Position numbers and translations under genes: made by a program. Of a stretch of DNA of 64,000 nt, positions 25,123 to 42,954 are shown one piece after another. How positions within the stretch are numbered: position 1 is the first letter of the stretch; each line of letters starts with the position of its first letter. This stretch comes from Paramecium tetraurelia (lineage: Eukaryota > Ciliophora > Oligohymenophorea > Peniculida > Parameciidae): NCBI RefSeq assembly GCF_000165425.1, contig NW_001798972.1:187368-251367 (forward strand), given 5' to 3'. Under the pieces are notes generated by a model, which was not told the origin of the DNA, did not search any database, and worked only from the letters and a program-made list of their open reading frames with translations.

Positions 25123-27225
25123 TCACTCATTAATCTTATCGAAATTAATATTATCAAAGGCATTTATACTTTGTTTGGTTAATAAATATGTCAAGGTTTC
25201 ATCAAATCTTACAAGTTCTATTTTGAATTAATAATATATTAATACCAAAATATTACATAAACTGTCTGAATTAGTCAACATCCTGAAATGCCAACAATTA
25301 GGCTAAATACTCTAATTCTATATTTGATATATATCTAAGATTAATGAAATATTTATACGTTTTTACTATTTATTTCAAAGCTTTTACTCTAATTCTAACT
25401 AAAAAATGATTAATAATACTTCCCATTGTCTCACTTGATTCTTTATAATCCTTAAATAGTTTAACATAATTTCCACATTTGTAAGATTCTCTTATCCTAA
25501 AATCATGAATAATTTATATACCCAAGAGCAAATTTAATTCTCTAATCATCAGGATTCTAATGCAATATTTTGACTAATTAATCTTATTTATTTAACATTG
25601 TTAGATAAACAATCCTATAACTATCAAATTCAACTTTATTTCCTATGAAATTGGCATCCTTCCCTTCACTTATGCTTATCATGTCATACAAATCACACAA
25701 CATAGTCCAACAACTTTCATATCTTGGGAAATCTCCACATTCTAAACAAATTCTAGCATTTTCTTCATACACTTATACTGTAAATCTATTCTCTATATGT
25801 TAAACCAACAAATCCTATCTTATTGATCTGAATTGCTCTATTGTGAAATTATAATCTGCCTAATAGTTCTTCCACTTCTCCAGAATATGATTTAAAGCCT
25901 TTTTTAAAATGTGTTCAGGTCTTATGGTATTAGGATCAGGCAAACCAGTAAGTCTATAATATGGTTTTTCTAAATCTTCACAAGTTCCCTTAAAAATAAA
26001 TTTAATTCCAATATACTGTAATTTTCATATTAGTTTAAATAAATTGGTCTTCTTCCTCTATTTTTTTTTTAATCTATTTTTATTGTTATTTAATCTATAT
26101 TGATGCATTGGGCTGTAATTTCCCGAATTATAGCATTGCCAAATCGATGCTATAGTCAATTTTCTTATTTTTCATATGATGTTGATTTAAAGTATCAACT
26201 TATTACTATTTCAGTTAATCGTTTAAAGACATCAAATTTTAAATACTAGTAGATGCTGTAATTTCTATTATTAAGAACCATTACTTTACGCTGGTCCAAT
26301 AGGTTGGGCTTAACTTGGAGCCCCAAATTTACTTGTTTAGCCTAATGAATTCAATGCCATAGCTGTGCTTTGTTTTATTTGGAGAGGTTAAGAAAATAAC
26401 GACTAAGTTCGTATTTAATTCTCTCTAGGAAGTGTTGGCAATGGAAATTTAGACCAATCCCTTATGCTGTATTCATTTTTGCGTTTGGCTTCTGCAATTG
26501 TAGCCTTTAAATATTGCTCCATGTGATTTCGTTCGTTGTCAGATTGACATTTATTAAATGCCCTCTCTACATACTATTTCACTGTAACAGAGGATTATTC
26601 GTTAAATATTTCTCTGGAATTACAAAATCTCGCACCTATTTTGGTAATTAAAATAATCATACTAACTAAATTAGGCATTTCAACATTTAACTTCCGATAT
26701 AAGTAGGAGTATATCTTAATCTCATTATCCCATCTTGAAGGTTGATCCAATTCTGAGACATCTACAGGAGGTAGAAATTGATTCTACTCTTTCTCAATCC
26801 TATTGTTCATCACATTTTTTTATTATTAATCTTGGACTTATTAAATATTTTATGGTTGCTATGGCTATTGTTGATTCACTTGTTAGAGTGGTTAGGATAC
26901 TTTTTATTGTGAATTCAACGCTGGATTGGATTGTTGGAGATACTATTACTAAGGTCTGTAAATGTTATTTAGATTACCCATGAGATTGTTATGTTCTAGC
27001 TTTAAATAATCATATACATTAGGTTTGTAACATTTGATAATTATATGGATGATATTGATTATATTAATATTGATTTGGCATCATTTACTAGTACCCATAT
27101 GGCATATATTAGTTATATCCATAGTAGTTTTGATACATAGATTACTAAGATGATTAGGATTGGCTAAAAGAAATCTACTCTGCTCTCATAGCATCTTCTA
27201 TTGTTTATCTTTTATTATTGCTCAT
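25123..27225 (-). CDS. SAC3/GANP-domain protein of the THP3/LENG8 type
   Basis: The N-terminal third is Gln/Tyr/Pro-rich and disordered. The conserved part starts with YVERAFNKCQS..MEQYL and DWSKFPLPTLPRE, a THP3/LENG8 hallmark. After a low-GC linker comes the SAC3/GANP helical domain: YRLTGLPDPNTIRPEHILKK, FRSIRQDLLVQHIENRFTVQ, then VYEENARICLECGDF, with further TPR-like/PCI helices to the C-terminus. Members of this family link splicing or transcription to mRNA handling and bind Csn12 and Sem1-like partners in yeast. Several tiny introns, one near the end restoring FELVRFDETLTYLL. Stop TGA is at 25123-25125, only 23 bp from the convergent K+ channel gene. About 640 residues. Confidence 0.85.
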
Positions 27226-27645
27226 TTTTAATTAAATGATTAATGTGTTTCAATATAAAACAATTTATCAATAGATAAATTATTAATTTTAATTCAAATG
27301 AGAAATAAGAACACAAAAAGAATAGAATTTCTAAATTCCACATTAAATTAGAGTTACTTGAGTTTTATATATATATCAAAAATAAAAGAGAATTTATTTA
27401 CTTAATTATGTAATTAAAACAAACAGAAAATGAAACTCTTTATAAATATCTTTTTGGTTAGATTCATGTTAGAAATCTCTCTCTACATAGTAAGTAAATC
27501 AATTCTAAAATGTGACAGTCATCAAATTGTGATGAGATCTTAATTTTTAATGCAAAAATGGTTTGAACAATAAAAATGATAAAATGGATTTATATAAATA
27601 GCTGAAATATCTTTATAATAGACTATCGTTCTTATACTTATAATG
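27226..27645. other. Intergenic, AT-rich
   Basis: About 420 bp between the start of the THP3-like gene and the end of Rpn7, both on the minus strand. No gene or repeat recognised. Confidence 0.5.
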
Positions 27646-28677
27646 TCATAAATCTGTTAATCTTGATAGTTTCTAAACTCTATTGAGTAGGTAATCACCC
27701 TATTTAATTAAATTATTATAGAGTTAGTTTCTATCATCAGCCCTAGATGATTCGATGATCCCAGCAACTTTATCAATTTTACAATTGATTCTTCTTGATG
27801 ATATTAATTCGCTCAATTCTCTAATGAATAAAATAATTTTATACCTATCAATAAATTATACACTGACTCCAAATGCTTTTGCCATATTATTCAATGTCAC
27901 TGTTTTATAGCTTTCCAAAAATTAGGAGTAGAATACTACTCTATATTCTCTAATTAAATATTTTCTATGGATACTCAAGTATTGATCCTGTGAAAGATTT
28001 TCATTGACAATTGCTAAAATATGAATGATATTCCATACCAAACTTCTAGAAGAGTGTCTTATAATCACATTGTAAAAATGATTCCAAGAAACTTTTCAGG
28101 ACTTGATTCTCTCTTAAAACTCCCACAACTTCTGGGTTTTAATGTACCTTCTTCTTTAAAGATTATCTATCCAAACATATGATACTGGTTAGAACAGTGT
28201 AACTAACTATTTCATTGTAGGATATGATTTCAGATGAATTGAATGTGGCAACAGAGTCTAAGAATAATTTGCATGCTTTTGTGATATCTCTGATCATCAA
28301 ACAATAAATTCCTTCATAAACTTTGAGTCTATTCTTTCTTTCCCAATCACCTCCTTAATCCAATAATATTTATTATTAATTCAAATGATCCTTGAATTTT
28401 TCGAGGTTTCTTTATTTTAAATATATTTGTAAAATTAAGAAATGGACATCCATTTTTTTTCCAATGCCAACAGATTTTGGCAATGTGTCAATATAAGTTT
28501 TGATTGCCTCAAATAATAATACAGATGTACATCTTCATATTTATTATATTTTTATTGCAATGAGGCTTTTTCAAGCATTGCATCTCTAACCTCAACATCT
28601 CCCAAATTCTCTTAAGAGTCTTTTATTTTATTTTCTGCTGCCTCTAACTATTCTTCGAAAGTTTTCTCCTACTCCAT
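27646..28677 (-). CDS. PSMD6: 26S proteasome lid subunit Rpn7 (PSMD6)
   Basis: Non-ATPase subunit of the regulatory lid, holding the PCI horseshoe together. Three introns (23, 25, 24 nt) give about 319 residues, somewhat shorter than the usual 390 because the N-terminal TPR part is reduced. Diagnostic stretches are NLGDVEVRDAMLEKA near the N-terminus, GGDWERKNRLKVYEGIYCLM, AFGVSVQFIDRELSELISS and INCKIDKVAGIIESSRADDR in the PCI winged helix, and the end GDYLLNRVQKLSRL. All are close to PSMD6 of animals and fungi. No signal sequence; acts in cytosol and nucleus. The missing N-terminal piece is the only oddity; I see no upstream frame that would supply it. Confidence 0.93.
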
Positions 28678-29079
28678 TTTAATTTTAAATTTAATTAATA
28701 CTAATCTCAATATAAGTATTAATTACTTCAAGTCTTAATTCTTCCAAATGTATTATACGTATGAATTATACTCAATTATTTGAGCCTTGGAAGTAATCCC
28801 AATCTGGTATTAATTCAAATAAGTATTTCAAATTAGAAAATATGGGTTCAGGAAAATATCAAAATCTTTTAGTACTTGGGGATAAATATTTATATCAAAG
28901 CGAAATCTTTGGTATCATAAAAGAATGTAACTTATTTTTAAATCACTTATGATAATTAATAAATATATTAAAAACAGAATTAGTGAAATGCACTTTATAA
29001 TAATAAATTCATTTGTTGATACTTTTTTGACCTTATTTATATTCGATATCATAAGATTATATTAATATAAATACAATTA
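28678..29079. other. Divergent promoter region
   Basis: About 400 bp between the divergent starts of Rpn7 and the CEP19-like gene. A 63-codon plus-strand ORF (28761-28952) is present but no longer than chance allows in this base composition. Confidence 0.45.
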
Positions 29080-29471
29080 ATGAATAAAATAAATTTATAA
29101 AAGAAACAAAAATAAAAATAAAAGTTTATTCCTTTAGGATTTGTCATCAAATACGATCCTCCTGTTATTGGTATCAGCTAAATATAAATATTAAAGGATT
29201 ATTATATAAGAGAAGCATACAGGAAAATAAAAAAAAAGTTTATAACATACATTTATAAAATTTAATAAGATTAGATGATGAGGTTGAGATAACTAAACAG
29301 TTATTTGAGGAACACCCTGAATTTTTGGATCCTGATATCATAGAGCCTGAATAAGTTTTAGGTTTAGTATAGAAGTTGATCGAATTTAGATAGATAATGG
29401 AGCAAGATGATGAAAATGAATATTTAGAAGAGGAGACTGATAGTCACATAATTGAGGAGATGTTTGATTGA
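29080..29471 (+). CDS. CEP19-like centriole/cilium protein
   Basis: One 26-nt intron gives 121 residues. The core resembles CEP19, a small protein that works with FOP/CEP350 and RABL2 in starting intraflagellar transport: FVIKYDPPVIGLLYK near the N-terminus parallels the PP..IL.Y strand, and the following helices (VEITKQLFEEHPEFLDPDII, then QVLGLVQKLIEF) match the conserved middle. The acidic end (NEYLEEETDSHIIEEMFD) parallels the acidic C-terminus of CEP19. A basal-body role would suit a ciliate, but I rely on motif similarity only. The stop lies 27 bp from the convergent phospholipase C stop. Confidence 0.6.
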
Positions 29472-29498
29472 TAATTTTTATCTTGATATATATTTTGA

Positions 29499-31644
29499 TC
29501 AATATTCAATTTTGATTTGCACTAAAACGTAGGAATTAGCTAAAGTTTTAAACTGAGAATTTAATAAAGGAATTATTCTATAGCCTGTCCTTAGGTTAAG
29601 TGGTGATAAACAATACTAGCCCAACAAGGAATCTCCCAATATGGAATAACTGTAGGCTTATACATAGATAACATCTTGTTAAGCATGTTTTAGTTGGATA
29701 ACACATTAGTAATTAAAGATTGGATGATATCCGTTATCCTAAACAACTTCTGTTCTCCACTTATCCGATTTGTTGACGTCATCTTTATTTCCAGCAACTC
29801 TAATTTTAATGTATGGATCAACAATTTCTTCTTATCTACGTTTCGCTTCCTCCCAAACCAGATTAGTTGCACTGATGATGCGAACATAAATGTTCATTCG
29901 TACATCTTGATTAGATTTCAAAACATAGGAACTGTTAAGGAACATTCCGTAATTCTACAACATAAATAAATCTTTGGTCTGAATATTCAAAGCAACCAAC
30001 TGAGCTCCTGCAGTCCAAGATGGGAATGGATCATAATTGCTTGAATCAAATCTCAATCCTAAAGGATAGACTCTGACAAAATAATTATCAACATATTCTT
30101 AGAATTTGCCATGACTCTTCTTTATTACATCCTATATTTTATCTTCTGAAACACTAGATACAATCCAAACTAATTCTGGCTTTTTGTCTAATTTTAGTGA
30201 TACTGCATATAATGAAGTAATTTCTAATAACTCTCTACATATTTTCTTGTGATGTTCATCAAGTGTTTGACTAAATTGTTTAACATTAGCTTAGATATCC
30301 TAATTATCATCGTCATCAAATGTAATCAACATATCGTCATGTGATTGTGTATAGAATAATGTGGAAGATTGAGTCTGCAATTTCTCCTATAAAAATTGAT
30401 CATCTCCCTTATATTTAACTAGAACTCTCCGTTACAATTATTGTAATGTAGAAAACTTCTCTTATTTGAAATCTTTAACCACAAACAGCATTTCTCCAAG
30501 AATGCTTTATAAGAGATCTGCTATTCTCTTTTATTATTTCAAACAACAATGCATTTCAAGTGATAAAATGGCAGGATTATTATCCTTATAGAAGGCAAAG
30601 TCCCTTACTGTAGAGATGACATCTTTGAATTTGATGTCATTAACCAAGGTATGTCCATGAGTAACCTTGGGTTCTCCATCTTCACCATCCCAACAATCCA
30701 ATTCAACACATTTAAATCCCATTTTGAAGGCATCTTAATAAGCAAAACAGCTTGATTCGCCTGTCAATTAATTTGTTTCCAAATAAGTATTATGTGAGGA
30801 ATTAATTAAGTATTTGGTGATTGGCTAAGATAGATCTACAGCCGTCGGTTGAAATAGTGAGTTCTCCTCACTAAAGATGAGATTTTGGAAATCATAAAAG
30901 TTGTATTATTTTCTTTTGGGTTAATAATCATTTTAAGCTTGTTCGACTTTGAAAAACTGTTGTAAGTCTTTATCTGTCATTAACATGGCTTAGAGTGGAT
31001 CTTCAAACATTCCTTCTTGTTTACTACTGTATTTTTGGTATAATTCTGTTAGTTCATGTCTGCGTGTTATGTCCATTAATAATTTATATAAGGTTGCTTC
31101 GTCTAATTGATTATTCTTTTGATTTTTCTCGAAGATCTAAATTAGTTTTCTTTCTGGAATTTCAATTTGCAATTCTCCTATTAGGAATTGAAATTCCTTG
31201 AAGTTGAGTTTGTTGTCCATGTCAATGTCTGCTTTGGTGATCAATTTGAGAGCACTGCTCCAGATTTGATTATAACTATCAAGTTGTTTTTAGATCCTGT
31301 TGCCTTCCTTAATCAAATAATCCAATCCCTCTTTGATTGTGATCAATTGGAAAGGATTTTCGAAATACAGTTTTATGTATTCTCCTTAAATGTTGATGAT
31401 TTTTAGTTTGGATTATTCCTTTTATTAGATGTCTGAGATCTGAGTGAGATCGAAATAGGTACTAAAAGTGCCTTGGGGATCAAGCTAAGATACAGATATG
31501 ATAGATGATTACCATTTAGATCATTCGAACCTCATTTGGACTTAACAATAAAATAATTTAAGTACGTTTCATCTTGTGCAATTTTACGTTGAGTAGCACA
31601 CCATAAACTAATGAATTAACACCTTAATGGTTGATTTTATTCAT
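29499..31644 (-). CDS. Phosphoinositide-specific phospholipase C
   Basis: Cleaves PIP2 to IP3 and diacylglycerol. From the N-terminus: a short PH-like region, EF-hand-like helices ([19 protein letters not shown], with the Asp-rich loop), the X domain ([11 protein letters not shown] and the [19 protein letters not shown] block with catalytic His and Glu/Asp residues), a linker, the Y domain, and a C2 domain ([15 protein letters not shown], then the terminal [18 protein letters not shown]). This is the delta-type layout. The first exon is uncertain: ATG 31642-31644 reads open to a 28-nt intron (about 31483-31510), but other splices through a PH-like reading are possible. Stop TGA 29499-29501. 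About 690 residues. Confidence 0.87.
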
Positions 31645-31691
31645 AGAAGTGGATTGTAATTAAAATAATCAAAGATAATGATATTATTAAT

Positions 31692-34337
31692 TCATTTATT
31701 ATCAGATAATAGTAATTGTTTGAGTAGAAAATCGGCTCCATTAATTGGTGGGTCAGCAGATTCAAATTTCTCAATAATTGGAACAATCGTCTACACTTCC
31801 CATTGCTCCCGAAAACTCTGACGTTTGTCAATCATCAAACACATCAACTTGACAATGCTTTGTTGCAATTCATTCTCGATAGGCACTTATAATAATTGTA
31901 TAATATAAGGCATCAACCCAGACTGCACTTTCTCCAAATATTTTTCATCCTCAACATTTAGATGACAAATCTTGAATATGGTATTGATGGCTTCGGCTTT
32001 CAAAAAGTCAACATCCTTTATTTCAACGAAATACACATCACTGATAAGCACGACAACCTGGAAGAACAGATCCAGTTTATCTCTGAGATCCATATCTCTA
32101 CTGATGCATTTAGTGTAGATCTTAAAACACATTGCCAGGACTTGAGCCGAGTATAGAGCAAATCCTTTATGCTTTTAGATGATTCCAATCAAAGTATTCA
32201 TGATATCTAACTAGAGGAAGGCTTCAATGTTCTGAACGATAGTCATTAATGAAAATATCAATTTCAAAGTATACAATAAGACATTCTGATTATTGGTAAT
32301 CAATTTACTGTTGATCAGAGCTATCCCATTTTCTTTCATGATCTAATACTTAAATTCCTTTGAATTCGCACACATATTATATAGAGCAACACAAGCATAA
32401 GTGCTTAACATAGGGTGATCAGATTAATATACAATTAGCAATGGTGATATCAATCCTTTTTGAAGATTTATGATTTGCTCTGTAATTTGCTCCTTATCTT
32501 TTGAATGATAAGTGATAATGTGCTTGCAAGTAGCTAATTTAGTAGTTTTCCCATGGATCAACAAATGCATTAGCAAATCAATATATAATTATTGTTAATC
32601 CTTCTTCAAAAGTTCCTCCTTAAATAAATCTGTATCTAAAAAGGAAATCATAACTCTTTCATTAAAGATGTATTTTTGATATGCTATTTTTGGGAACTTC
32701 TTAGACACTTCCTCAATAATGAAATCATTACTAACACCAGACTATTCTGACACAGAATATAAACAGAAATCAAACACCTTAAGAACATCATCCTTATAAT
32801 AATTATGTGCCTTCATTATTGTCTTAAATCTGAAACTGGAATCATAGCCTCCATCCAATTAAGAGGCTAAGTATCTTGACACCTTGTAGATATATATCCT
32901 TGTTTTTTCCTATTTTTATTTGTCACTAAGTTTAAGTTCTGAGAATTGAGTTGCTGAAATCTTTTTGAATCCATCCAATATGACAGCAGGTCTCTTGTTC
33001 TAATCTAATTCTTTTTCATTGTCAGATTTATTAAATAAAATTTTGAATCCCTGAATAATAGGAATAACCAAGGTTTCCCTGATTTTAGGAGTGATCAAAT
33101 GTTTCTATTGGACATAGAACATCCAATCCTCATCAAAAACGAGACTGTCAGCCATCAATTGCAAGAATCCTTTGTATATAGGATCCATGGGTTTCAAATC
33201 TGAGGCATAAATAGAATCGGCAGCATCTCTCATAATATTCAACCAATAGAAATCTGAATACAATTGTTTATATGCAGCAATATAAGCTTCTCCTGCATTC
33301 TTTTTTTCCTCTTCTCCATCTTCCTCATTTTCAGATTCTTATAATTACTCTTCTAATTCTTATTAATCTTGGTCTGCCTCAGGGTTGTTATCTTCAACTT
33401 TGCATTTTGGATCATAAAGAAAGGTAAGCACAATGTCAACGAAATTCTCTAAATATGGTGGATGGTATTTCCTTCTCATCATAATCACAGCATATTCCAT
33501 TTCAATAGCCTACTTAGTAGTTCGTTTCTTCTTAGTGCCTTGTTGAGGTTCATCTTGATGTTTCATGACAACCTTGGCTCTTGTTTGCCAACACTTCCAT
33601 TCTGCTAAATCATTGTACAGATTCTTTCTTTTAAAATACGGGGCTGAATGAGTTATCCAATACTTTTCTTCTTCTGACAGAGCATTATGCACATAATATT
33701 CAGCATAATACTGTATATCTTGATGATTGTGCATGTGTTCCAAAACTTCGAGCTCATTTGTTTCTGAAACTTGCAAAGTGAATTGAGATTTGTTTTATCC
33801 ATTTCGATATAACCCTTTCTTTGTATTCTAATAGGAATTCAGGAAAAAGATGTTGTATCCATTGAGCACATGCATATTAAACTTATACATTTCTTGATTC
33901 TCCATCAATTCTACTTATGGCTTCTTCAACATTGTTACTTGATAGTTGTAATCCCTAAACTTACCCTTATAAGTTGGCAATTCACGCACTTCCAGAAACT
34001 TATACATGTAATCTGTCTTCCAACCCTACTGAATAAACTTGATCAAATCTCTTCGTTCTAAAGTGTGAATGTTCATTTTGAGTGGCACATTCTTGGGTCT
34101 CTTCCCATTGAAATGAATCTAAAACAAATATATATCCTGAGATGACACAATCAAACGATCAATGCATTAAAAACTCACTTTAGCTTCCAATATGTCAAAT
34201 CCTTCTTTCAAAAAGAATATTGAAGTGTTTCCCAATACTATAAAATACCGATTATCGTTATGTTGAACCAGAGTCATGTATTCTACACCCATTTCAAATA
34301 GAGATGACAAGGCAGTCTTAGTTGTCACACTAATCAT
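31692..34337 (-). CDS. Intronless large helical (ARM-like) protein of unknown function
   Basis: A single open frame of 882 codons without introns, unusual for a gene this long here. The N-terminal 250 residues contain beta-rich, PH- or GYF-like stretches (NDNRYFIVLGNTSIFFLKEG). A charged middle (AIEMEYAVIMMRRKYHPPYL, then an acidic Glu/Gln-rich loop) leads to an all-helical C-terminal half with ARM/HEAT-like repeats (HPMLSTYACVALYNMC, LINSKLITNNQNVLLYTLKL, IIQLLQVPIENELQQSIVKL). The layout loosely recalls RME-8/DNAJC13 but I find no J domain, so I do not assign it. It shares a 56-bp divergent promoter with the MUL1-like gene and ends 47 bp before the phospholipase C start. Confidence 0.75.
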
Positions 34338-34393
34338 TAGATTTATTTAATTTATATCATCCTTACAACATGTGACATAAATATATTTATATA

Positions 34394-35417
34394 ATGGATA
34401 GTCCAGTCACAATATTTTCATTTGTTGGAAGTAGTGCCACTGGTTTCGCCCTTTACCAACTCGTACCCTTGCTTTCGCAGTTGAAGAAGAAATACATCCA
34501 ATACCAGCAAATCAATGAATTTACGCCCACCTCTCTGCTGAATTACTTCAATCAAACTCAGCAAACCACAGTTGAAGCCTTCATTGCAGGAGAATTGATA
34601 TCTGATAGTCCAATCATCTCAAAGGTCCCTCTCATTATAAGTGAAAAGAAAATCTATTACGTTTATGAAAATGGCATGTATATTCTTAACATTATTTCAT
34701 AGAAAAAAGCTAATCAAAATCATCCAACATGGTGCATCTTAATTAAGTGTTGCTGACTATTACAATAGAATTGAAATATGGAAAAACTCAACTCTTAATT
34801 ACCAATTTTCCATGAGTCATATCTGGGATCGCTTTCTACCAAAACAACTAAGTTTCTTTTAAAGATTTGCAAATTTCATCCTCAAAACATTGAATTAAAT
34901 CAAAACAAGAAGACTATTTCTCAAAGGCTTTTATACTGGATAACTGGAAAGGGAATACGGTATCATAGCAAGGGAATTCTATGTATTATATGGTGAAGTT
35001 ATACTAGATAAAAAGCTAAATAAGATGTTCCTCTAAAATCCAAAATTCATTCTCAAAAGCAAGAAACAATTGTTATAGATAATATAATAATAGATTAAAT
35101 ATAAGAGATTAACAATAGCAATTCTAGTTGTTATATTTACTATTTGGACATATATTTTTGGTTGTAATGTTAAAAATTTGATTTTTAAAATTCTTAAAGA
35201 GAGAGAGAAAGCAAGATTAGATAAGTTAAGAGGCTAAAAATACTTAGAAATTGATAATTATGAGTGCCAGATTTGTTATGAAAGACCACGAAACATCATT
35301 ATTAAACCTTGCAAACATCTGACCTTGTGTCATGAATGTATATAAAGACTTAAGTAATAAAAATGTCCCATTTGTAAATAATAGATTGAGGATTAAATTG
35401 AAATCTTTTTTACTTGA
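34394..35417 (+). CDS. MUL1/MAPL-like membrane RING E3 ubiquitin ligase
   Basis: One 25-nt intron (about 34678-34702) gives 332 residues. The N-terminus has a hydrophobic segment (FSFVGSSATGFALYQLVPLL), then a BAM/GIDE-like domain (VEAFIAGELISDSPIIS, LIISEKKIYYVYENG), a second membrane helix (TIAILVVIFTIWTYIFGC) and a C-terminal RING (CQICYERPRNIIIKPCKHLT, then CHECIQRLKQQKCPICK) of the C3HC4 type. This order is that of MUL1/MAPL, which sits in the outer mitochondrial membrane. A peroxisomal location is also possible in ciliates. Divergent from the ARM-like gene with a 56-bp gap. Confidence 0.85.
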
Positions 35418-35446
35418 AAATTATATAAATGTAATTGATTATTATA

Positions 35447-36444
35447 TCAACATTCATCAATATCAGAATATACAGATTCGTCAACTTCAGCCAAATTATC
35501 TAGAATTTCTATTATTCTCGCTTGCTTTAATTTTTCGCATTCCTACTCATTCTTAGCCAACAAAGACCCTGTAAAACATACTGCATTAAATGATACTCCA
35601 TTATAAGTTGCTTTCTTTCGAACTACTATCATCATAAACTCCTAAGTCATTATTAAGTTGTGTTTGAAATCCTTAATATCCTCTACTTTACACTTATTTA
35701 ATAGCTTTTCATAAGTTTCGTAAATTAAATTCTATTACTATAACTCATCACAATTCTTGCTTTATAATAAATCCTGATTAAAAAATAATATAAAATGCTT
35801 GATCTTTTTTAAGTACCTCAACCTTGTAAATTTGTTTGGCTATTTCACACTCCTCTCAAACCACCATTCTCTTACGTGATTTAATATATTTGCGCTTTGA
35901 AATGCTAATTTAGACACAATTTAAACATGTTTGTGATCTAAAGAAGCCCCCGCCTCACTATGAGAATTAAAAAATGCAAATCCCTCTACTGCGCATAACA
36001 CATCATAGGCTAAACTTAAGTAATCTTTGCTGAACTTCTCACTTTAATGAATAAATTATTTTGGCACCAACAATGTATGGTATGGATTTACAGGATATTT
36101 ATTCAATAGCAGATTATAATTCTCAAGCTTCATAACTAACTGTCCAGGTTGGAAAGGTTCAATTAAAGGATCAATCTATATGTATATTTATACTCCTGCT
36201 TACATTTTCTTAATGACACACTGGTTTCTTGGCTAGAGATTTCACTAATTTTATGTGAAATTCTATTCCTTGTTCGTTTTTAGAAAAAGTTTGTAATACA
36301 TCAAATGGTTCTACAAACCCCCCATCAGCATTCGCATTATAACATTGCATTATTTGCTTTTTTATATTCTCACGAAACTCTGCTTTCGTAAACTAAATAT
36401 ACCAAATACTCACTCTACCCCTCTAAATATTCGATAAATTCCAT
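35447..36444 (-). CDS. ATP adenylyltransferase (Apa1/Apa2-type diadenosine tetraphosphate phosphorylase)
   Basis: Phosphorolysis of Ap4A to ADP and ATP, a HIT-superfamily reaction using a catalytic His. Two introns (31 and 28 nt) give 312 residues, typical for the family. Motifs: an N-terminal FVEPFDVLQTFSKN, the core NLLLNKYPVNPYHTLLVPKQ, the middle FFNSHSEAGASLDHKHVQIV, where HKHVQ is the HxHxQ active site with the His nucleophile, and the C-terminal Apa2 part (VSFNAVCFTGSLLAK). The first intron position was chosen because it links the frame at TEFRENIKKQIMQ. Stop 35447-35449 lies 29 bp from the convergent MUL1-like gene. Cytosolic by lack of signals. Confidence 0.9.
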
Positions 36445-36631
36445 AACTAAACCCTATAGCAACAACCCCAAATAACCCTTTTGAGAATATTTATGATTTC
36501 ATAAGTAAATTATTTTAATAAACTATATAATACTGTGTAACAATGATATCTAAATTTAGACAAAACAATTATTTTAAGGATTGTCATTAGAATAAAATGT
36601 TGCATTGATTTAGAAATATAGATTATTATTA

Positions 36632-36970
36632 ATGTTTCATTTATGTAATGTATAATTATTGGTTAGATTTAGATTATCATTTTCTTTTTTTTTTGATTCT
36701 AATCTTCTTTGTGTACTTTTTCTAACAATATTTTCATCTTTATATATATAAATAAATGGAATTTACAAATTCTTGATTTGATTATCATAAATTCAATGCA
36801 AAATCCAAAAATGAATGCATTTCTAAAATGTTTAAAATACATTGATCTTGCTTTTTATTATACTGTTTATAATTTCTCTGCTGTCACCTCAAATGTATAA
36901 AACTTTCCTAATTTCTACTAATCTTTTGATTATTTAGACATTTTATTATTTCTATATTATTTATATATAT
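36632..36970. repeat. Left arm of a 339-bp perfect inverted repeat
   Basis: Read base by base, this arm equals the reverse complement of 40190-40528 with no mismatch found, including a 10-T run. It ends about 5 bp past the stop codon and 29 bp before the start codon of the small gene it contains. Flanking sequence on both sides is unrelated between arms. Confidence 0.9.
36637..36941 (-). CDS. Small single-pass membrane protein, copy 1 (inside inverted repeat)
   Basis: Start TTA-strand ATG 36939-36941, a 29-nt intron and TGA 36637-36639 give 91 residues (276 coding nt, in frame). The first 35 residues are polar (MSKQSKDQQKLGKFYTFEVT), then comes one hydrophobic stretch (FRNAFIFGFCIEFMII), then a basic helix (YENIVRKSTQRRLESKKK) and a polar end. 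The layout of a short leader, one membrane helix and a positive tail is common in tiny mitochondrial assembly factors, but I recognise no family. The gene is identical to copy 2 at 40219-40523, including intron and about 29 bp upstream, implying very recent duplication or gene conversion. Confidence 0.65.
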
Positions 36971-37276
36971 ATATTTAATATATTCTTAATTGTGTTGATT
37001 ATTAATTTCAAGTTAAATCCTATCTTTTATATTAGAAAGTTTTCCCAAATTTAATTATTTAATTTCAGATATAATATACGCTCTTGTGTCTTGATTAGTA
37101 AAATATTTTAGTTGCAGAACTAGATTAATTAGTTTAAACGAATATTTAATCAATCTTTAACATTTACCTTATCTTAATGTGAGAGTAAGAAATTCAATCT
37201 TATTTGAAGGGTTATTATAATAAATTAAATATTCTATAAATCAATAAATAACTATATTATAATTAAATCATTTGTC
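36971..37276. other. Divergent promoter region
   Basis: About 306 bp of AT-rich sequence between the divergent starts of the small membrane protein copy 1 and the cyclin gene. No ORF or repeat seen. Confidence 0.45.
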
Positions 37277-38117
37277 ATGTTCGACTAAGCATAGTTAACA
37301 GAATTGTCAAAGAGAGATAAAGTATTAGTCTCTTCTAGTTTTAGGATAAAAAGTTGAACTCCTAATTACCTCTCTATATTGGGAATTCTCAGGGTGTTTG
37401 TAGAAGAGATATCCTCGTTTAGTGGGTTATTTAGGTAATTACAAAATATTATTTCAGTAATCTTAAAAATTTGAGCACAGCCTCAAAACCTTGGAATTAG
37501 CAGTGATATACATAGATACTTATCTGAATATTTTTAATATTGAACCTGAATTTTTAGAGCTCTTGGGCATTTCAGCATATTCAATGGCTTCTAAAGTAAT
37601 TTATTTTTGTAGATTGAAAGTTTAATGAAACAGAAGCAATAGGCCAAATTAAGTTAAAGGATGATTTTGGCAAAGTGTTATACGAAGATCAAGTATACAA
37701 CGAAATGGAAGTTCAATTGTTGTAATCCTTAGATTTCCAATTAAATCACGTAACTCCATCCGATTATCTGATTGAAATGGGTATTTCAATAAACGAAAGC
37801 ATTTCCAGTCTCATTATGTTTGTTTTAATGGGTAAATTATTTGTTATATCATTTAATTAGATTTCGAAATTTATAAACATTCTTAGATTGTTCTAGCATT
37901 TGCTATTTTCAACTTTTAATAAGAACAGTCTCACATGTTTACAGATAGAGTTAAATCAGTGACTAAATTGATAAACAATAAGTTAAATAAAGCAAAAGAG
38001 CAATTTAATTTGGATAAAACTGAAAATGATGAAACAAGAGGGCTTGAATCAAATTTAGGCACTTAAAAAAAAATATACAAAAAAAGATAGTCAAAAAAGT
38101 TAAAACAATTAGCATGA
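37277..38117 (+). CDS. Cyclin
   Basis: Four introns (23, 23, 25 and 29 nt) give 246 residues with a consistent frame. The cyclin box is visible: RRDILVQWVIQ near the N-terminus, then HSLKTLELAVIYIDTYLNIF, LELLGISAYSMASK and LQSLDFQLNHVTPSDYLI, which follow the helix pattern and spacing of B-type or cyclin-Y-like boxes. The C-terminal box is weaker and the end is basic (KKIYKKRQSKKLKQLA). It would activate a cyclin-dependent kinase; which one cannot be told. The gene lies inside the loop between the inverted repeats. Confidence 0.8.
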
Positions 38118-38741
38118 ATGACTTATCTTGATTGGTTTCAATGAATTTGATCTAAGGGGAGATCATATAAAATAATAATATATCATTTCATTTCATTTTC
38201 TATTTTCCATTCAAAGGATTAAAAAATGTAAATCAGAATCCAAATTAACATTCATAAATTTTACTTAATATGCAAATGCTCCTTTTAAAACTACGATACT
38301 GCTTTAAATTTATTAAACCATTTAATTCAAGCAAAGAACAGTCCTGATCCAAAATATAATAGAAAATTTTTCAAATAATGTATTACTTAGTTTAATTTAC
38401 CTTTTTTCTTTGAAACACAATATAAATTTATATAAATTCATATTTCCTCATTTAGATTTAAATTGTAAAAATTATCGTGAATTAATTAAGGTTCTCTCTA
38501 ATGTTCACAATTATGATGCGATACGAAATAATACAATTGATTTTTATATCGTTATCTATTTTTGGACATTAGTTGACCAACAATTTATTATTAATTAATT
38601 TTTTATTGAAATTTTAATATCATTCTAAATAAGTGAAACATAAAGTAAAAGCTATATTCGAAATGACTGAGCAATTTTATTAAAATAAAAATATTATGTA
38701 ATGTTTATTTAAAAAAGAATAGAGAACAATAAAAATAAGAA
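38118..38741. other. Convergent intergenic, AT-rich
   Basis: About 620 bp between the cyclin stop and the stop of the HTH gene. The plus strand has about 180 codons free of TGA (38122-38670) but no ATG and poor composition, so I treat it as noncoding. Confidence 0.45.
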
Positions 38742-39585
38742 TCATACAATAAATGGAACTAATGGACTTTATGTTTTCATAATTATTTATTACATCTAAA
38801 TATATTATTTTTATACCATATTCTACAATTACGAATACTATGAACATAGAGTCTAATACTTTGAGGATAAAACAACATTCTCTTGATATAAATTTGACAC
38901 TTAAACTTAATATAACAAATTCTAAAATAACTCTTTAAATTTACCTGATTTGTCAGTTATTGGATGAGCATAAGTTATTATTTGTTTTAGTCTTCCATGA
39001 CTTAGATAGGTTGCTGCGTTATTTCCTTTGCAATTTCATCTGTCTATTTCTTTAATTCATTTTCCTCTCCAATACCTAGAATAGGATAAATCTATTATTT
39101 TACTTTAGTCTTTTGTTACTACATTGAGTCTTTTGTACATTTAACTTTGTCTTTTTTTGTTCTTACGAATGACTTTTTTACAAGATCTTCCTTCCTTCTT
39201 GAAAATCTACATGATCGCCTTTGCTGTTGAGAAGTTGATACCAAGTTATTATGCTGCACTCTTTATTGTACATCCAGTTTATGTGACTTATTTGATCAAA
39301 CCCTCTCTCTAATCGTTGGTTATTTTTGCATACTTGAGGCCGTGCTTACCTGATTTAAAACTTAAATAATATTGTACCTCTTCTTCTTTTTGTCATCTCT
39401 TGTTCATTTGATGATTAAATCAATAATTTCTTACATTCCTGCTCCTGCTCTGCTAAACTGAAAGACGAGTCAGAGTCATTATTACTGTGGGAGCCTTGTA
39501 CAGAGCAAATTTCTTAATCATCCATGTTAGAGGAATTGACTGGATTAAGTATTTGGCACTGCTAGATTTATTCTTTTGGATCCAT
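38742..39585 (-). CDS. Transposase-like helix-turn-helix DNA-binding protein with coiled-coil tail
   Basis: Three introns (28, 28 and 23 nt) give 254 residues in a consistent frame. After a disordered acidic N-terminus comes a basic patch (TKRRRGKHGLKYAK) and a helix-turn-helix: REGLIKQVTQTGCTIKSAAQ, then LGINFSTAKAIMQIFKKEGR. This pattern (sIK.AA..LgI..sTak.I...fkkEGR) is that of homeodomain-like HTH domains found in Tc1/mariner, Pogo and pipsqueak-type transposases and derived regulators. A basic tail (KKVIRKNKKRQ) and a Gln-rich coiled coil (DQNKQQLMLIQQLTNQ, later SQYSQLQNMVQKQYIQMQ) follow. No DDE catalytic domain is present, so it is either a domesticated DNA-binding regulator or a decapitated transposase. 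It sits within the inverted-repeat loop. Confidence 0.72.
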
Positions 39586-39821
39586 ATTTTACATACAAAT
39601 CAATTTTAAATTAAATCAAACTAAATTATGAGATATATTAAGTGATGAATTAAATTGAGAAGACGTCATTGTAATAATTATGTCTCTATTAAGAATATAT
39701 TAATTTTTATTACACAAACAACTGTTTTTTATTACATTAACATCATTTCTATGAATATTTTCTGTAATTATATTAACAAACTTATGTATTTTCAAATTAG
39801 TGATAGCCATTTTTATAAAAT

Positions 39822-40007
39822 TCAATTTGTCAATATTTTTATAATAATTAATTGAGATTAACAAACACTCTTTGGAACCTTAAAAACAACATAAAGGATG
39901 AAATATGGCATTCTGCTTTTTTGAACAGATGCAAATATTAATTATTCATAATAAATTACATTTTTAAGTCTAATTTCCTATTAAATATAATTTGGTGCTC
40001 TACTCAT
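39822..40007 (-). CDS. Possible tiny protein
   Basis: Intronless 61-residue frame starting MSRAPNYIQQEIRLKN with a hydrophobic middle (PYFILYVVF). The N-terminal composition looks like real coding sequence, but the length is close to what chance gives with only TGA as stop. An intron in the middle is also possible. Lies between the HTH gene and the right inverted-repeat arm. Confidence 0.35.
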
Positions 40008-40189
40008 TTTTAAATTTATGATAATTCTAACCTAAATGAATAAAGTACTATCAAAGTCTTAAACAAATTGAAGTTATGAAAATTAACAAATAATAAAATT
40101 GAAATCACTCATTATTAATTATTTAATGTATGATTATTAATAATTAAATAACAAAAAATTGTTAAGAATATTAATAGATATTTATATTA

Positions 40190-40528
40190 ATATATATAAA
40201 TAATATAGAAATAATAAAATGTCTAAATAATCAAAAGATTAGTAGAAATTAGGAAAGTTTTATACATTTGAGGTGACAGCAGAGAAATTATAAACAGTAT
40301 AATAAAAAGCAAGATCAATGTATTTTAAACATTTTAGAAATGCATTCATTTTTGGATTTTGCATTGAATTTATGATAATCAAATCAAGAATTTGTAAATT
40401 CCATTTATTTATATATATAAAGATGAAAATATTGTTAGAAAAAGTACACAAAGAAGATTAGAATCAAAAAAAAAAGAAAATGATAATCTAAATCTAACCA
40501 ATAATTATACATTACATAAATGAAACAT
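40190..40528. repeat. Right arm of a 339-bp perfect inverted repeat
   Basis: Reverse complement of 36632-36970, identical over all bases I compared. The two arms are separated by 3,219 bp. The repeat limits coincide with the limits of one small gene plus about 29 bp upstream and 5 bp downstream. Confidence 0.9.
40219..40523 (+). CDS. Small single-pass membrane protein, copy 2 (inside inverted repeat)
   Basis: Identical in sequence to copy 1 at 36637-36941 but on the other strand; ATG 40219-40221, 29-nt intron at 40394-40422, TGA 40521-40523, 91 residues. The two copies point away from each other, with the cyclin and HTH genes between their 5' ends. See copy 1 for the protein. Because upstream identity ends only 29 bp before the ATG, the two copies probably have different promoters and may be expressed differently. 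Confidence 0.65.
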
Positions 40529-40570
40529 AGTTAAGCTTTAATAAATTAACATTTCTTTTAAATTACTTGA

Positions 40571-41150
40571 TCATTATCTTGATATAATATTATCATTTAT
40601 CGAAATTAAAAAGAAATAGAATTGTGATTATGGATAATCTTCAGCAAATTTTAGTCCATCAAATCTTAAAACCACTCCATAATTTAACAAATTTAAATCA
40701 ATTCTTATAAAAGACTAATAATTAATTATATCTCTGTTTTTTATAATTTTCTTTCAATTCATTTTTAATATTGCATATAAATTATTTTAGCTTACCTTAA
40801 GAGTCATATGTTTAAAATATCATTCTTAAAATATATATTCTTTTCAAAATTATAATTCTGGATATTCTAACGATATATATTTGAAGTAAAATGACTAATA
40901 TAATAAAAAGGTTGCTTTGATCAAATTCTATCTTCAAAGTCATAAATAATCAATCTGCTGCAGATATAAATAATGATAAATACAAAACATAATTAAAAAT
41001 ATTGAATATAAGAGAATATCTAAAAATTAATAATTAGACTACAAATTTCTTTTAAACGACATAATTATTTTTTGTGTTATAGCATTGATTTCAAATCTTC
41101 TCTTTAGATCCTTCGACACTCTATAAGATGGTCTTATTCAATACTATTCA
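40571..41150 (-). pseudogene. Possible decayed gene
   Basis: Several short minus-strand stretches look coding but sit in different frames: ECRRIQREDLKSMLQHKKQL near 41,090, SNLFYYISHFTSNIYRQN near 40,900, and YGVVLRFDGLKFAEDYPQSQ near 40,640. I could not join them with introns of normal size, except with a 45-nt one. Either an intron-rich gene I cannot resolve or a decayed copy. The region 41,150-41,454 shows nothing. Confidence 0.3.
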
Positions 41151-41454
41151 AACCTTAAAGTGCTAAAGATAATAATAATAATTTATAAGAGTTAAATCTA
41201 TTTTAAGGATATCAAGTAACAAAGGATTTGATATCAGAACACTGAATTATTTATTACAGTTAACAATAGAAATATATATAATAGTTATGAGAAACATTCT
41301 CATAAAATGGGAAGATTCTTATGTTTTTTGAATTAGAGAATGTTAATAAATTTTTAATGAATGAACTTGTATTAAATACTGAAATTTATTCAAGAAATTA
41401 AGATGAGAATAATATAAAAAATGATAATAAATGCGTTAATAAATTAAATACAAA

Positions 41455-41965
41455 TCATAAAATTAACTGTTCGCTGAGCAGAAAGGCTGGCACTCTTTAT
41501 TTTTTTTAAACAAGATCTCTAAATTATTATGATAATTTACTCTAAGAATAATTTTAACACTCCACTAGACTTATTCATTTCTAAAAATATTTTGGTCTTG
41601 TCATATTTTTATTATTTTTAGATTTGATTTTTATCTGGTCTAGAAAACGGGTCTTAATGAATTGATAGAGGTCTATTTAAATTATGATAGAGAAATAAAG
41701 GATCTTCCTTCATTTAAGCATAATTTGATCTTATTTCATCATGAAAGTTTTTCTATTCCTTTTATTCCATGAATCGTTTCTCATATGGTATATACCAATG
41801 GTTATAAAATTTTGGTTTTGGGGAAGGCGATACATGTTCCGAATATCTGGAAGTCTTATTATTTTCAATTAATTTTGGTAAGGATTTAAAATTATTTGTT
41901 CTCGAACTCTGTGCTTCTTTCATGTGAATACTCTTTGCTCTTGGTTATAATTTCTGTTATATCAT
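41455..41965 (-). CDS. Unknown small basic protein
   Basis: One 22-nt intron gives 162 residues in frame. Polar and basic, with a Pro/aromatic-rich middle (SEHVSPSPKPKFYNHWYIPY) and a short helical end (GVLKLFLEDLVQKKQRV). No signal peptide, membrane helix or known motif. It follows the single-TM protein gene on the same strand, 72 bp downstream of its stop. The composition resembles small axoneme-associated proteins of ciliates, but this is only an impression. Confidence 0.5.
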
Positions 41966-42037
41966 TAATAACAAAGTTTAGAAAGTTAATATAATAATTA
42001 AATGAATTAATTTAACTTTTCAAGTAAATTAACTTAG

Positions 42038-42954
42038 TCAAACAATTTTAGTTCCTCTTGCTGTCTATTATTATAGTGTCTATAACTATTCTTCAGCTTG
42101 TTTCAAATTCATCTTTAGTGTTTCATTTTCTTTTAATAAATTTTCAAACTATAATTAAGCAGTCACCGTGGCTTTGGTAGCAAAATAAGTTGAAATTGAT
42201 TTCGGAATAGAATAAGCGATTCCAAGGACAAATAATCCCATAAGGATATATTTAAAAGACACTTACCCTATAATTTTGGCTTTTTATAAAACATTTTTAT
42301 AAATGAATGCAAAACTCGCTTTCTAAGCATCTTTAAATTTGGAGAACTTTTGTTTCTATTCATCGAAATTTTATGAATATTAATTATTCAGATCAGATGC
42401 ATCTTATTAAAACTTATTGGTGTATTTATTCCAAAATTGATAAGTCCATCTATCTTATTTGGATTGGGTTTAGTTTTATTGCTATTATTTATATTAATTA
42501 GTATAATTGGTTGATGAATAGTTAGTTTATTATTTTTTATATGATGACTAGTTTTCAGATGATGTTTTCCAAAAAGCATTGTTTTTTAGTTTATTTAAAG
42601 AACTCTGTAGTTTAAGATTATATTGTTGCAATGTTTCCTTGGGGAAGGTTTTTTACAATTGATTAATATATAATTCTAGGAATCAATTTAAGAATTTACC
42701 TTTTTCCTTTTTAGCAAATCCTTTGAGTTTTTTGAAAGGATCACTTACGTAGACATCCTTTAGAACTAAGGTTTAGATTGATTATTACTATTCGAATATT
42801 CTTTGAAATTAGACAAATGATCAAAAGTAGGTTTGGTTGGATCTTTAGCATTATTCATTTGATTGATGTGCATCTTTTCACTTTTTAATTATTGCGTCAC
42901 TTTATTTGCAGAGACTTTAGCTTGATTAACAATTTATAAAATTTTTTAGAGCAT
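42038..42954 (-). CDS. Unknown single-membrane-helix protein with coiled-coil ends
   Basis: Two introns (23 and 24 nt) give 289 residues with a consistent frame. N-terminal helical part (MLQKILQIVNQAKVSANKVT, then ILKDVYVSDPFKKLKGFAKK), a Gln/Tyr/Asn-rich stretch, an amphipathic region (NFDEQKQKFSKFKDAQKAS), one membrane helix (YILMGLFVLGIAYSI) near residue 225, and a C-terminal coiled coil (LQFENLLKENETLKMNLKQ). Could be a mitochondrial or ER membrane tether; no family recognised. TAG/TAA Gln codons are frequent. Lies 50 bp downstream of the kelch gene. Confidence 0.6.

What the first reader, a model, noticed from the sequence alone, without database searches (positions are those of the whole stretch)
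36632..40528. Perfect 339-bp inverted repeat carrying two identical small genes and enclosing a cyclin and a transposase-like HTH gene
Each arm holds a complete 91-residue membrane-protein gene with its intron; arms are identical over all 339 bases and end within 5 bp of the stop and 29 bp of the start. The 3.2-kb loop contains a cyclin gene and a homeodomain-like HTH protein gene of transposase type, the classic content of a TIR-bounded mobile unit, yet no DDE domain is present. Perfect identity down to the intron means very recent inverted duplication or ongoing gene conversion, or an arrangement still processed during nuclear differentiation.
Basis: partly seen in the sequence, partly recalled or inferred. 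Interest (0 to 1): 0.7.

Follow-up and report, generated by a model that had tools for sequence, protein, structure and literature searches.

The report
Recent inverted copy of small segment
A 339-base stretch of a ciliate (Paramecium-type) chromosome, which may carry one tiny gene, occurs twice in opposite directions 3.2 kb apart, most likely because it was copied recently; it does not look like the ends of a jumping gene, and apart from being a rare kind of event in these genomes it is ordinary.

Summary
The inverted repeat is real in the assembly: 36632-36970 equals the reverse complement of 40190-40528 over exactly 339 bases. It is the only inverted pair of 60 nt or more found in the window, and a search of the 69-Mb assembly gives these two places only. 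The mobile-unit reading fails: the loop's cyclin lies in the same order beside the same Ap4A phosphorylase gene on contig C28, the likely whole-genome-duplication partner; the HTH gene belongs to a dispersed family (35 places); none of the 44 loop-overlapping ORFs of 60 codons or more shows a DDE or recombinase domain; there is no target-site duplication. The 'small gene' is unproven: no convincing relative, ambiguous coding score, AAG intron acceptor, low hydropathy. Detectable homology stops at both arm edges, favouring one recent DNA-level inverted duplication over gene conversion inside an older repeat. Which copy is the parent cannot be told. Recent single-gene duplications are reported as rare in the P. 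aurelia group (median 28 per genome, PMC10195154). Assembly error is not excluded.

The parts
36632..36970 (-). left arm of the inverted repeat; small ORF would read outward on the minus strand
   Evidence: exact 339-bp reverse complement of 40190-40528; two places in the assembly
40190..40528 (+). right arm; candidate 91-aa ORF 40219-40523 with a possible 29-nt intron 40394-40422 (GTA...AAG)
   Evidence: coding status unproven
37277..38117 (+). cyclin gene in the loop (start codon and introns chosen by me); 5' part colinear with a decayed copy on C28
   Evidence: ATG position; Cyclin_N E 2.2e-15; colinear with C28:199184-199590
38742..39594 (-). HTH-domain gene (extent approximate; domain at about 39123-39350)
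   Evidence: 35 places with this domain in the genome at E<=0.01, the gene itself included; HTH_28 in 12 of 12 aligned members
35447..36190 (-). left neighbour, Ap4A phosphorylase, with a 78% identical copy on C28
   Evidence: Pfam ATP_transf and Ap4A_phos_N; C28:197570-198298

Best explanation
A 339-bp stretch of chromosome was copied once, recently, in inverted orientation to a site 3.2 kb away (or the other way round). It spans at most one small gene plus 29 bp upstream and 5 bp downstream. The copy was made at the DNA level, for example by template switching or by a captured fragment during break repair in the AT-rich intergenic DNA. The cyclin and HTH genes between the copies are bystanders. 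Shown: exact identity, no detectable homology beyond the edges, no other copies found, ancestral position of the cyclin. Inferred: recent age, the germline event, the copying mechanism. Unknown: which copy is the parent, and whether either is expressed.
For: 339 of 339 identical. Beyond the edges the arms' flanks are not clearly more alike than shuffles (inner, anchored: 126 of 300 shuffles reach the score; outer, anchored: 285 of 300; inner, free local: 35 of 300; outer, free local: 216 of 300; inner 300 against 550 bases: 122 of 200). Zero differences bounds divergence at 0.026 per silent site, or 0.009 over all sites, against dS 0.83-1.18 in 5 of 6 partner gene pairs. No other copy found in the assembly. 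The cyclin sits in the same order and orientation on C28. A retrocopy is unlikely by inspection: no A-tract follows the right arm's stop end and the possible intron is kept. Published: recent single-gene duplications occur, rarely, and favour genes without a whole-genome-duplication partner (PMC10195154, section 12).
Against: The small gene itself is unproven, so 'gene duplication' may be only 'segment duplication'. No relative's genome was available to show the one-copy state. The partner region C28 shows neither a significant remnant of the arm (276 of 1000 shuffles reach the score; 51 of 300) nor a clean empty site (84 of 300). An assembly error cannot be excluded without reads.
Confidence: 0.7

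Rival explanations
1. An older inverted duplication whose arms are kept identical by gene conversion.
For: Gene conversion between whole-genome-duplication copies is described as common in Paramecium (PMC10195154 and PMC11334263, passages). Inverted neighbours are good conversion partners (general knowledge).
Against: No diverged homology halo is detectable on either side of the perfect tract (the weakest case, inner free local, 35 of 300). Conversion would have had to cover the whole repeat exactly.
Confidence: 0.13
2. Assembly artefact: one of the arms is not in the genome.
For: An arm of 339 bp exceeds the 150-nt reads used for some published P. aurelia assemblies (PMC10195154, passages); this assembly's species and method are unknown to me. 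No reads were available.
Against: An artefact that inserts an inverted copy between unique flanks, 3.2 kb away with a unique loop, is an unusual error (general knowledge). With a complexity filter, no other exact inverted pair of at least 30 bp was found in the window, and in 120 kb elsewhere the only separated pair is two tRNA-Phe genes.
Confidence: 0.12
3. A TIR-bounded mobile unit carrying the cyclin and HTH genes as cargo.
For: Arm length is of the order of the 425-bp and ~700-bp TIRs of Paramecium Sardine and Thon elements (PMC3464196, section 8). The HTH family has weak similarity to transposase HTH models (LZ_Tnp_IS481 in 6, HTH_Tnp_1 in 5, HTH_SB in 4 of 12 members).
Against: Cyclin in ancestral order; no target-site duplication for k = 2 to 12; no DDE or tyrosine recombinase domain in 44 of 44 loop-overlapping ORFs of 60 codons or more; two arm places in the assembly; arms lack long internal palindromes; no DDE_3 place on C19 among the 5 found.
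Confidence: 0.02
4. A functional inverted repeat: inversion of the loop during macronuclear development, or a source of double-stranded RNA.
For: Two identical inverted arms permit recombination; the developing nucleus makes many breaks (general knowledge). One arm strand folds modestly better than shuffles (z -2.18, 2 of 100 shuffles).
Against: The assembly shows the loop in the same orientation as C28. No read evidence. The ORFs point outward, so no single short transcript would hold both arms.
Confidence: 0.03

Closest known systems
Recent single-gene duplications in the Paramecium aurelia complex (PMC10195154)
   Same: two nearly or fully identical copies inside a block of conserved synteny, and no whole-genome-duplication partner detected
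   Different: here inverted, 3.2 kb apart, ended sharply close to one short ORF, and coding status is unproven
Paramecium Tc1/mariner elements Sardine, Thon, Anchois (PMC3464196)
   Same: inverted arms around a few kilobases (long in Sardine and Thon)
   Different: no transposase, no tyrosine recombinase, no TA duplication, no copies found elsewhere, arms without long palindromes, loop made of ancestral chromosome
Gene-converted duplicates of Paramecium (McGrath et al. 2014, known here only through citations in PMC10195154)
   Same: identity higher than expected for old paralogs
   Different: no diverged homology detected outside the identical tract

Membership tests
recent single-gene duplication | two copies with near-zero silent divergence | tested here: met
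   0 of 339 differences; bound 0.026 per silent site
recent single-gene duplication | unit contains a real gene | tested here: inconclusive
   coding score within both classes: 19.8% of 303 coding tiles (33.3% of 36 low-G+C tiles) score at or below exon 1, 24.0% of 804 noncoding open frames (20.3% of 408 G+C-matched) at or above; no convincing homologue
recent single-gene duplication | outgroup with one copy | not testable with these tools
   the assembly 'has no relatives here'; partner region C28 inconclusive
Tc1/mariner-type TIR transposon | DDE transposase inside | tested here: not met
   none in 44 of 44 loop-overlapping ORFs of 60 codons or more; no DDE_3 place on C19 among 5 in the genome
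Tc1/mariner-type TIR transposon | TA (or other) target-site duplication at the outer ends | tested here: not met
   TA versus AG; no full match for k = 2 to 12
Tc1/mariner-type TIR transposon | loop absent from the ancestral site | tested here: not met
   5' part of the cyclin colinear on C28
Tc1/mariner-type TIR transposon | more than one copy in the genome | tested here: not met
   this assembly only: 2 arm places, 1 full-length loop place; germline not available
internal eliminated sequence | TA-bounded segments present in germline, absent in soma | not testable with these tools
   no germline sequence; TAYAGYNR-like octamers score 7 of 8 at both inner edges, in AT repeats, and 4 to 6 of 8 at the outer edges (consensus recalled)
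gene-converted older inverted repeat | diverged homology flanking the identical tract | tested here: not met
   inner and outer flanks not clearly better than shuffles

The most novel reading that the evidence does not exclude
The arms are a maintained inverted repeat at which the cyclin/HTH segment is inverted, or silenced through arm-derived small RNA, in a fraction of macronuclear copies, giving cells alternative cyclin expression states.
Probability: 0.03. Interest if true: 0.75.

Novelty: new member of a known kind. Interest (0 to 1): 0.2.

Why it matters
Recent single-gene duplications are reported to be extremely scarce in the P. aurelia complex (median 28 per genome, PMC10195154). A fresh one with both edges sharp and both copies in view would be a useful case for how such copies arise in a genome shaped by whole-genome duplication. 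Otherwise it removes a candidate mobile element from consideration.

Tried and rejected
Tried without result: homologues of the small reading in the own genome, Pfam, PDB and NCBIfam. I recalled a resemblance of its FGxxxExxMIKxR stretch to the small mitochondrial protein SMIM4/UQCC5; the Pfam model PF15114 did not find the arms (its single match, 18.1 bits on C51, is below cut-off, and I read the frames there without identifying them), so the lead is dropped. Rfam (36400-40800) and tRNA (whole window) searches found nothing. Five loci around other cyclin relatives show no convincing small-gene neighbour. One weak tblastn match of the unspliced reading, on L042 (C21:135360-135476), has E 0.012 with a stop inside; 6 of 200 shuffled queries do as well on the same loci, and it is one of several queries tried, so I do not count it. 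Inverted repeats around HTH relatives and other loci: 1 of 19 loci had an exact pair of 26 bp or more, a self-overlapping palindrome.

Rejected after testing: my first reading that the partner contig keeps a remnant of the left arm (a 34-bp match); shuffles show it is not significant (276 of 1000; 51 of 300). In the direct comparison the left-arm orientation aligns better than its reverse complement (298.5 against 266.3), which leans to the left arm as the older copy but is one comparison without a null. My suspicion that an AAG intron acceptor disproves the small gene was withdrawn: 69% of P. tetraurelia introns are GTA...TAG, and by its Table 1 70.5-76.5% end in TAG (PMC9612004, passages); the share of AAG was not in what I saw. 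Two favourable-looking shuffle results for the stretch between left arm and cyclin against C28 (6 of 500; 15 of 300) are among about a dozen tests; the joined 'empty site' alignment did not support an insertion (84 of 300).

Dropped rows: one of six gene pairs (31692-34406) aligned over only 117 codons (dS 1.59, dN 0.92) and was left out of the dS range, because that gene has no colinear match on C28. Noncoding and inverted-pair counts are after the composition and complexity filters in those scripts. The fold search with the HTH model gave 465 matches at E<=10 and 0 at E<=0.001, mostly bacterial HTH regulators among the top 50, with IstA transposase at ranks 14 and 31; it does not decide the type of HTH.
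Full report
What is there. The window is G000:C19:187368-251367 of a 69.07-Mb, 231-contig assembly that reads with the ciliate code (TAA and TAG as Q). Code, tiny introns and the duplicated contigs fit a Paramecium macronuclear genome; the species was not identified. The two arms, 36632-36970 and 40190-40528, are exact reverse complements over 339 bases, with no further matching base at either end. The 385-bp, 95% figure of the repeat finder is an ungapped extension into AT-rich DNA: the flanks are not clearly more alike than shuffles (anchored inner, 126 of 300 shuffles reach the score; anchored outer, 285 of 300; free local inner, 35 of 300; free local outer, 216 of 300). The arms are 19% G+C against 28% for the window. 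A search of the whole assembly gives these two places and no other; the loop is found at full length once.

How unusual. With a complexity filter it is the only exact inverted pair of at least 30 bp in the window. In 120 kb sampled elsewhere (C177:300001-400000 and C28:190001-210000) there is one separated pair, 101 bp long and 16 kb apart, and one self-overlapping palindrome; the pair is two tRNA-Phe genes. So a 339-bp pair without RNA genes is not common, but the sample is small.

The loop is not cargo. The neighbouring Ap4A phosphorylase gene has a 78% identical copy on C28. C28:190001-210000 is colinear with the window from 25439 to 36543, with gaps (the largest 31645-34382), and again from 42911, with dS 0.83-1.18 for 5 of 6 gene pairs examined, as I would expect of a whole-genome-duplication partner. 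Between these blocks C28 keeps the 5' part of the cyclin (76% identical, C28:199184-199590) in the same order and orientation. The cyclin was therefore next to the Ap4A gene before the duplication, and the loop is in its ancestral orientation. On C28 no HTH match was found in the 3.6 kb examined (best E 1.0); a frame of over 400 codons there carries a GGTGSG motif that I recognise, from recall, as tubulin-like (not tested against a family library).

The HTH gene. Its domain occurs at 35 places at E<=0.01, itself included, on many contigs, with near-identical pairs of members among the 12 looked at (for example L029/L030 and L027/L028). All 12 of 12 aligned members match HTH_28 at E<=0.01; transposase HTH models match fewer (6, 5, 4 and 2 of 12), and the window copy is below every curated cut-off. 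A single-sequence structure model is helical (mean pLDDT 76.7) and its best structural matches are weak and mixed, mostly bacterial regulators, with IstA transposase at ranks 14 and 31. All 44 loop-overlapping ORFs of 60 codons or more were scanned against Pfam (10 at E<=0.1, 34 at E<=0.01; count): apart from cyclin and HTH only weak hits below cut-off, none to a DDE or recombinase domain. The 5 DDE_3 places in the genome are on other contigs. It is better read as a dispersed host gene family than as a transposase.

The arms' small ORF. A 91-codon reading exists if a 29-nt GTA...AAG stretch is spliced. No convincing relative was found (one weak match discussed under Tried and rejected). With a three-periodic model trained on 48 ORFs, exon 1 scores 0.016: 19.8% of 303 coding tiles (33.3% of 36 low-G+C ones) score at or below this, and 24.0% of 804 noncoding ATG-open frames (20.3% of 408 G+C-matched) at or above. 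A cruder codon test placed it above all 17 local intergenic frames but just below the 5th percentile of 154 coding tiles. Its highest 19-residue hydropathy is 1.16, below the 1.6 usually asked for a membrane span (recalled). So 'two identical membrane-protein genes' is a possibility, not a result. If it is a gene, the unit carries 29 bp upstream, longer than the median 19-nt 5' UTR of P. tetraurelia, but only 5 bp after the stop, shorter than the 44-nt median 3' UTR (PMC5485702, passages).

Age and mechanism. No differences in 339 bases gives an upper 95% bound of 0.009 substitutions per site over all sites, or 0.026 over about 116 silent sites. That is at most about 3% of the partner divergence, but because the Paramecium mutation rate is so low (1.94-2.44e-11 per site per division, PMC11334263, passages) it still allows some 2 to 6 x 10^8 cell divisions. 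Edges without a detectable diverged halo fit one recent duplication better than conversion inside an older repeat. By inspection there is no A-tract, so a retrocopy is unlikely. Which arm is the parent cannot be decided: the arm does not align to the partner's Ap4A-cyclin interval significantly better than shuffles, although the left-arm orientation aligns better than its reverse complement.

Comparison with the literature. Single-gene duplications are reported as extremely scarce in P. aurelia genomes, median 28 recent ones per genome, with a bias to genes that lost their whole-genome-duplication partner (PMC10195154, section 12 read, other passages). This locus fits that class if the ORF is a gene. 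Paramecium Tc1/mariner elements Sardine and Thon have 425-bp and ~700-bp palindromic TIRs and encode a DD35E transposase and a tyrosine recombinase (PMC3464196, section 8 read); none of these features except long inverted arms is met here. Three searches of the paper library for inverted repeats, palindromes or inversion in the Paramecium macronucleus listed 5, 6 and 0 papers; from the listings, and the passages of PMC3464196 that I saw, I found no description of such a case. I did not open the others for this question.

Verdict. A real, exact, locally unique inverted repeat in the assembly; most likely a recent inverted duplication of a short segment; ordinary in kind though of a rare sort in this group; assembly error remains possible.

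Noticed in passing
window 37596-37620: An intron of the cyclin ends in AAG, with an in-intron TAG 8 nt upstream; in 5 of 5 cyclin relatives inspected the corresponding intron ends in TAG right before the conserved exon start. The window copy may be weakening; the C28 copy is already truncated.
   Followed up: partly
C28:199601-201100 (L035/L036): An open frame of over 400 codons with a GGTGSG motif, tubulin-like by recall, lies where the window has the HTH gene and right arm; it has no DNA match in the window.
   Followed up: partly
window 31692-34406: A 904-codon ORF without a colinear copy on C28: the partner's match runs out at 31645 and resumes at 34382, so one copy was probably lost after the duplication.
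   Followed up: no
window 37597-42911: Long AT-rich, seemingly gene-poor stretch without a DNA match on the duplication partner.
   Followed up: no
C177:358182-358282 and 374232-374332 (L051, L053): 101-bp exact inverted pair holding two tRNA-Phe genes, with partly similar flanks just upstream of the exact tract.
   Followed up: yes
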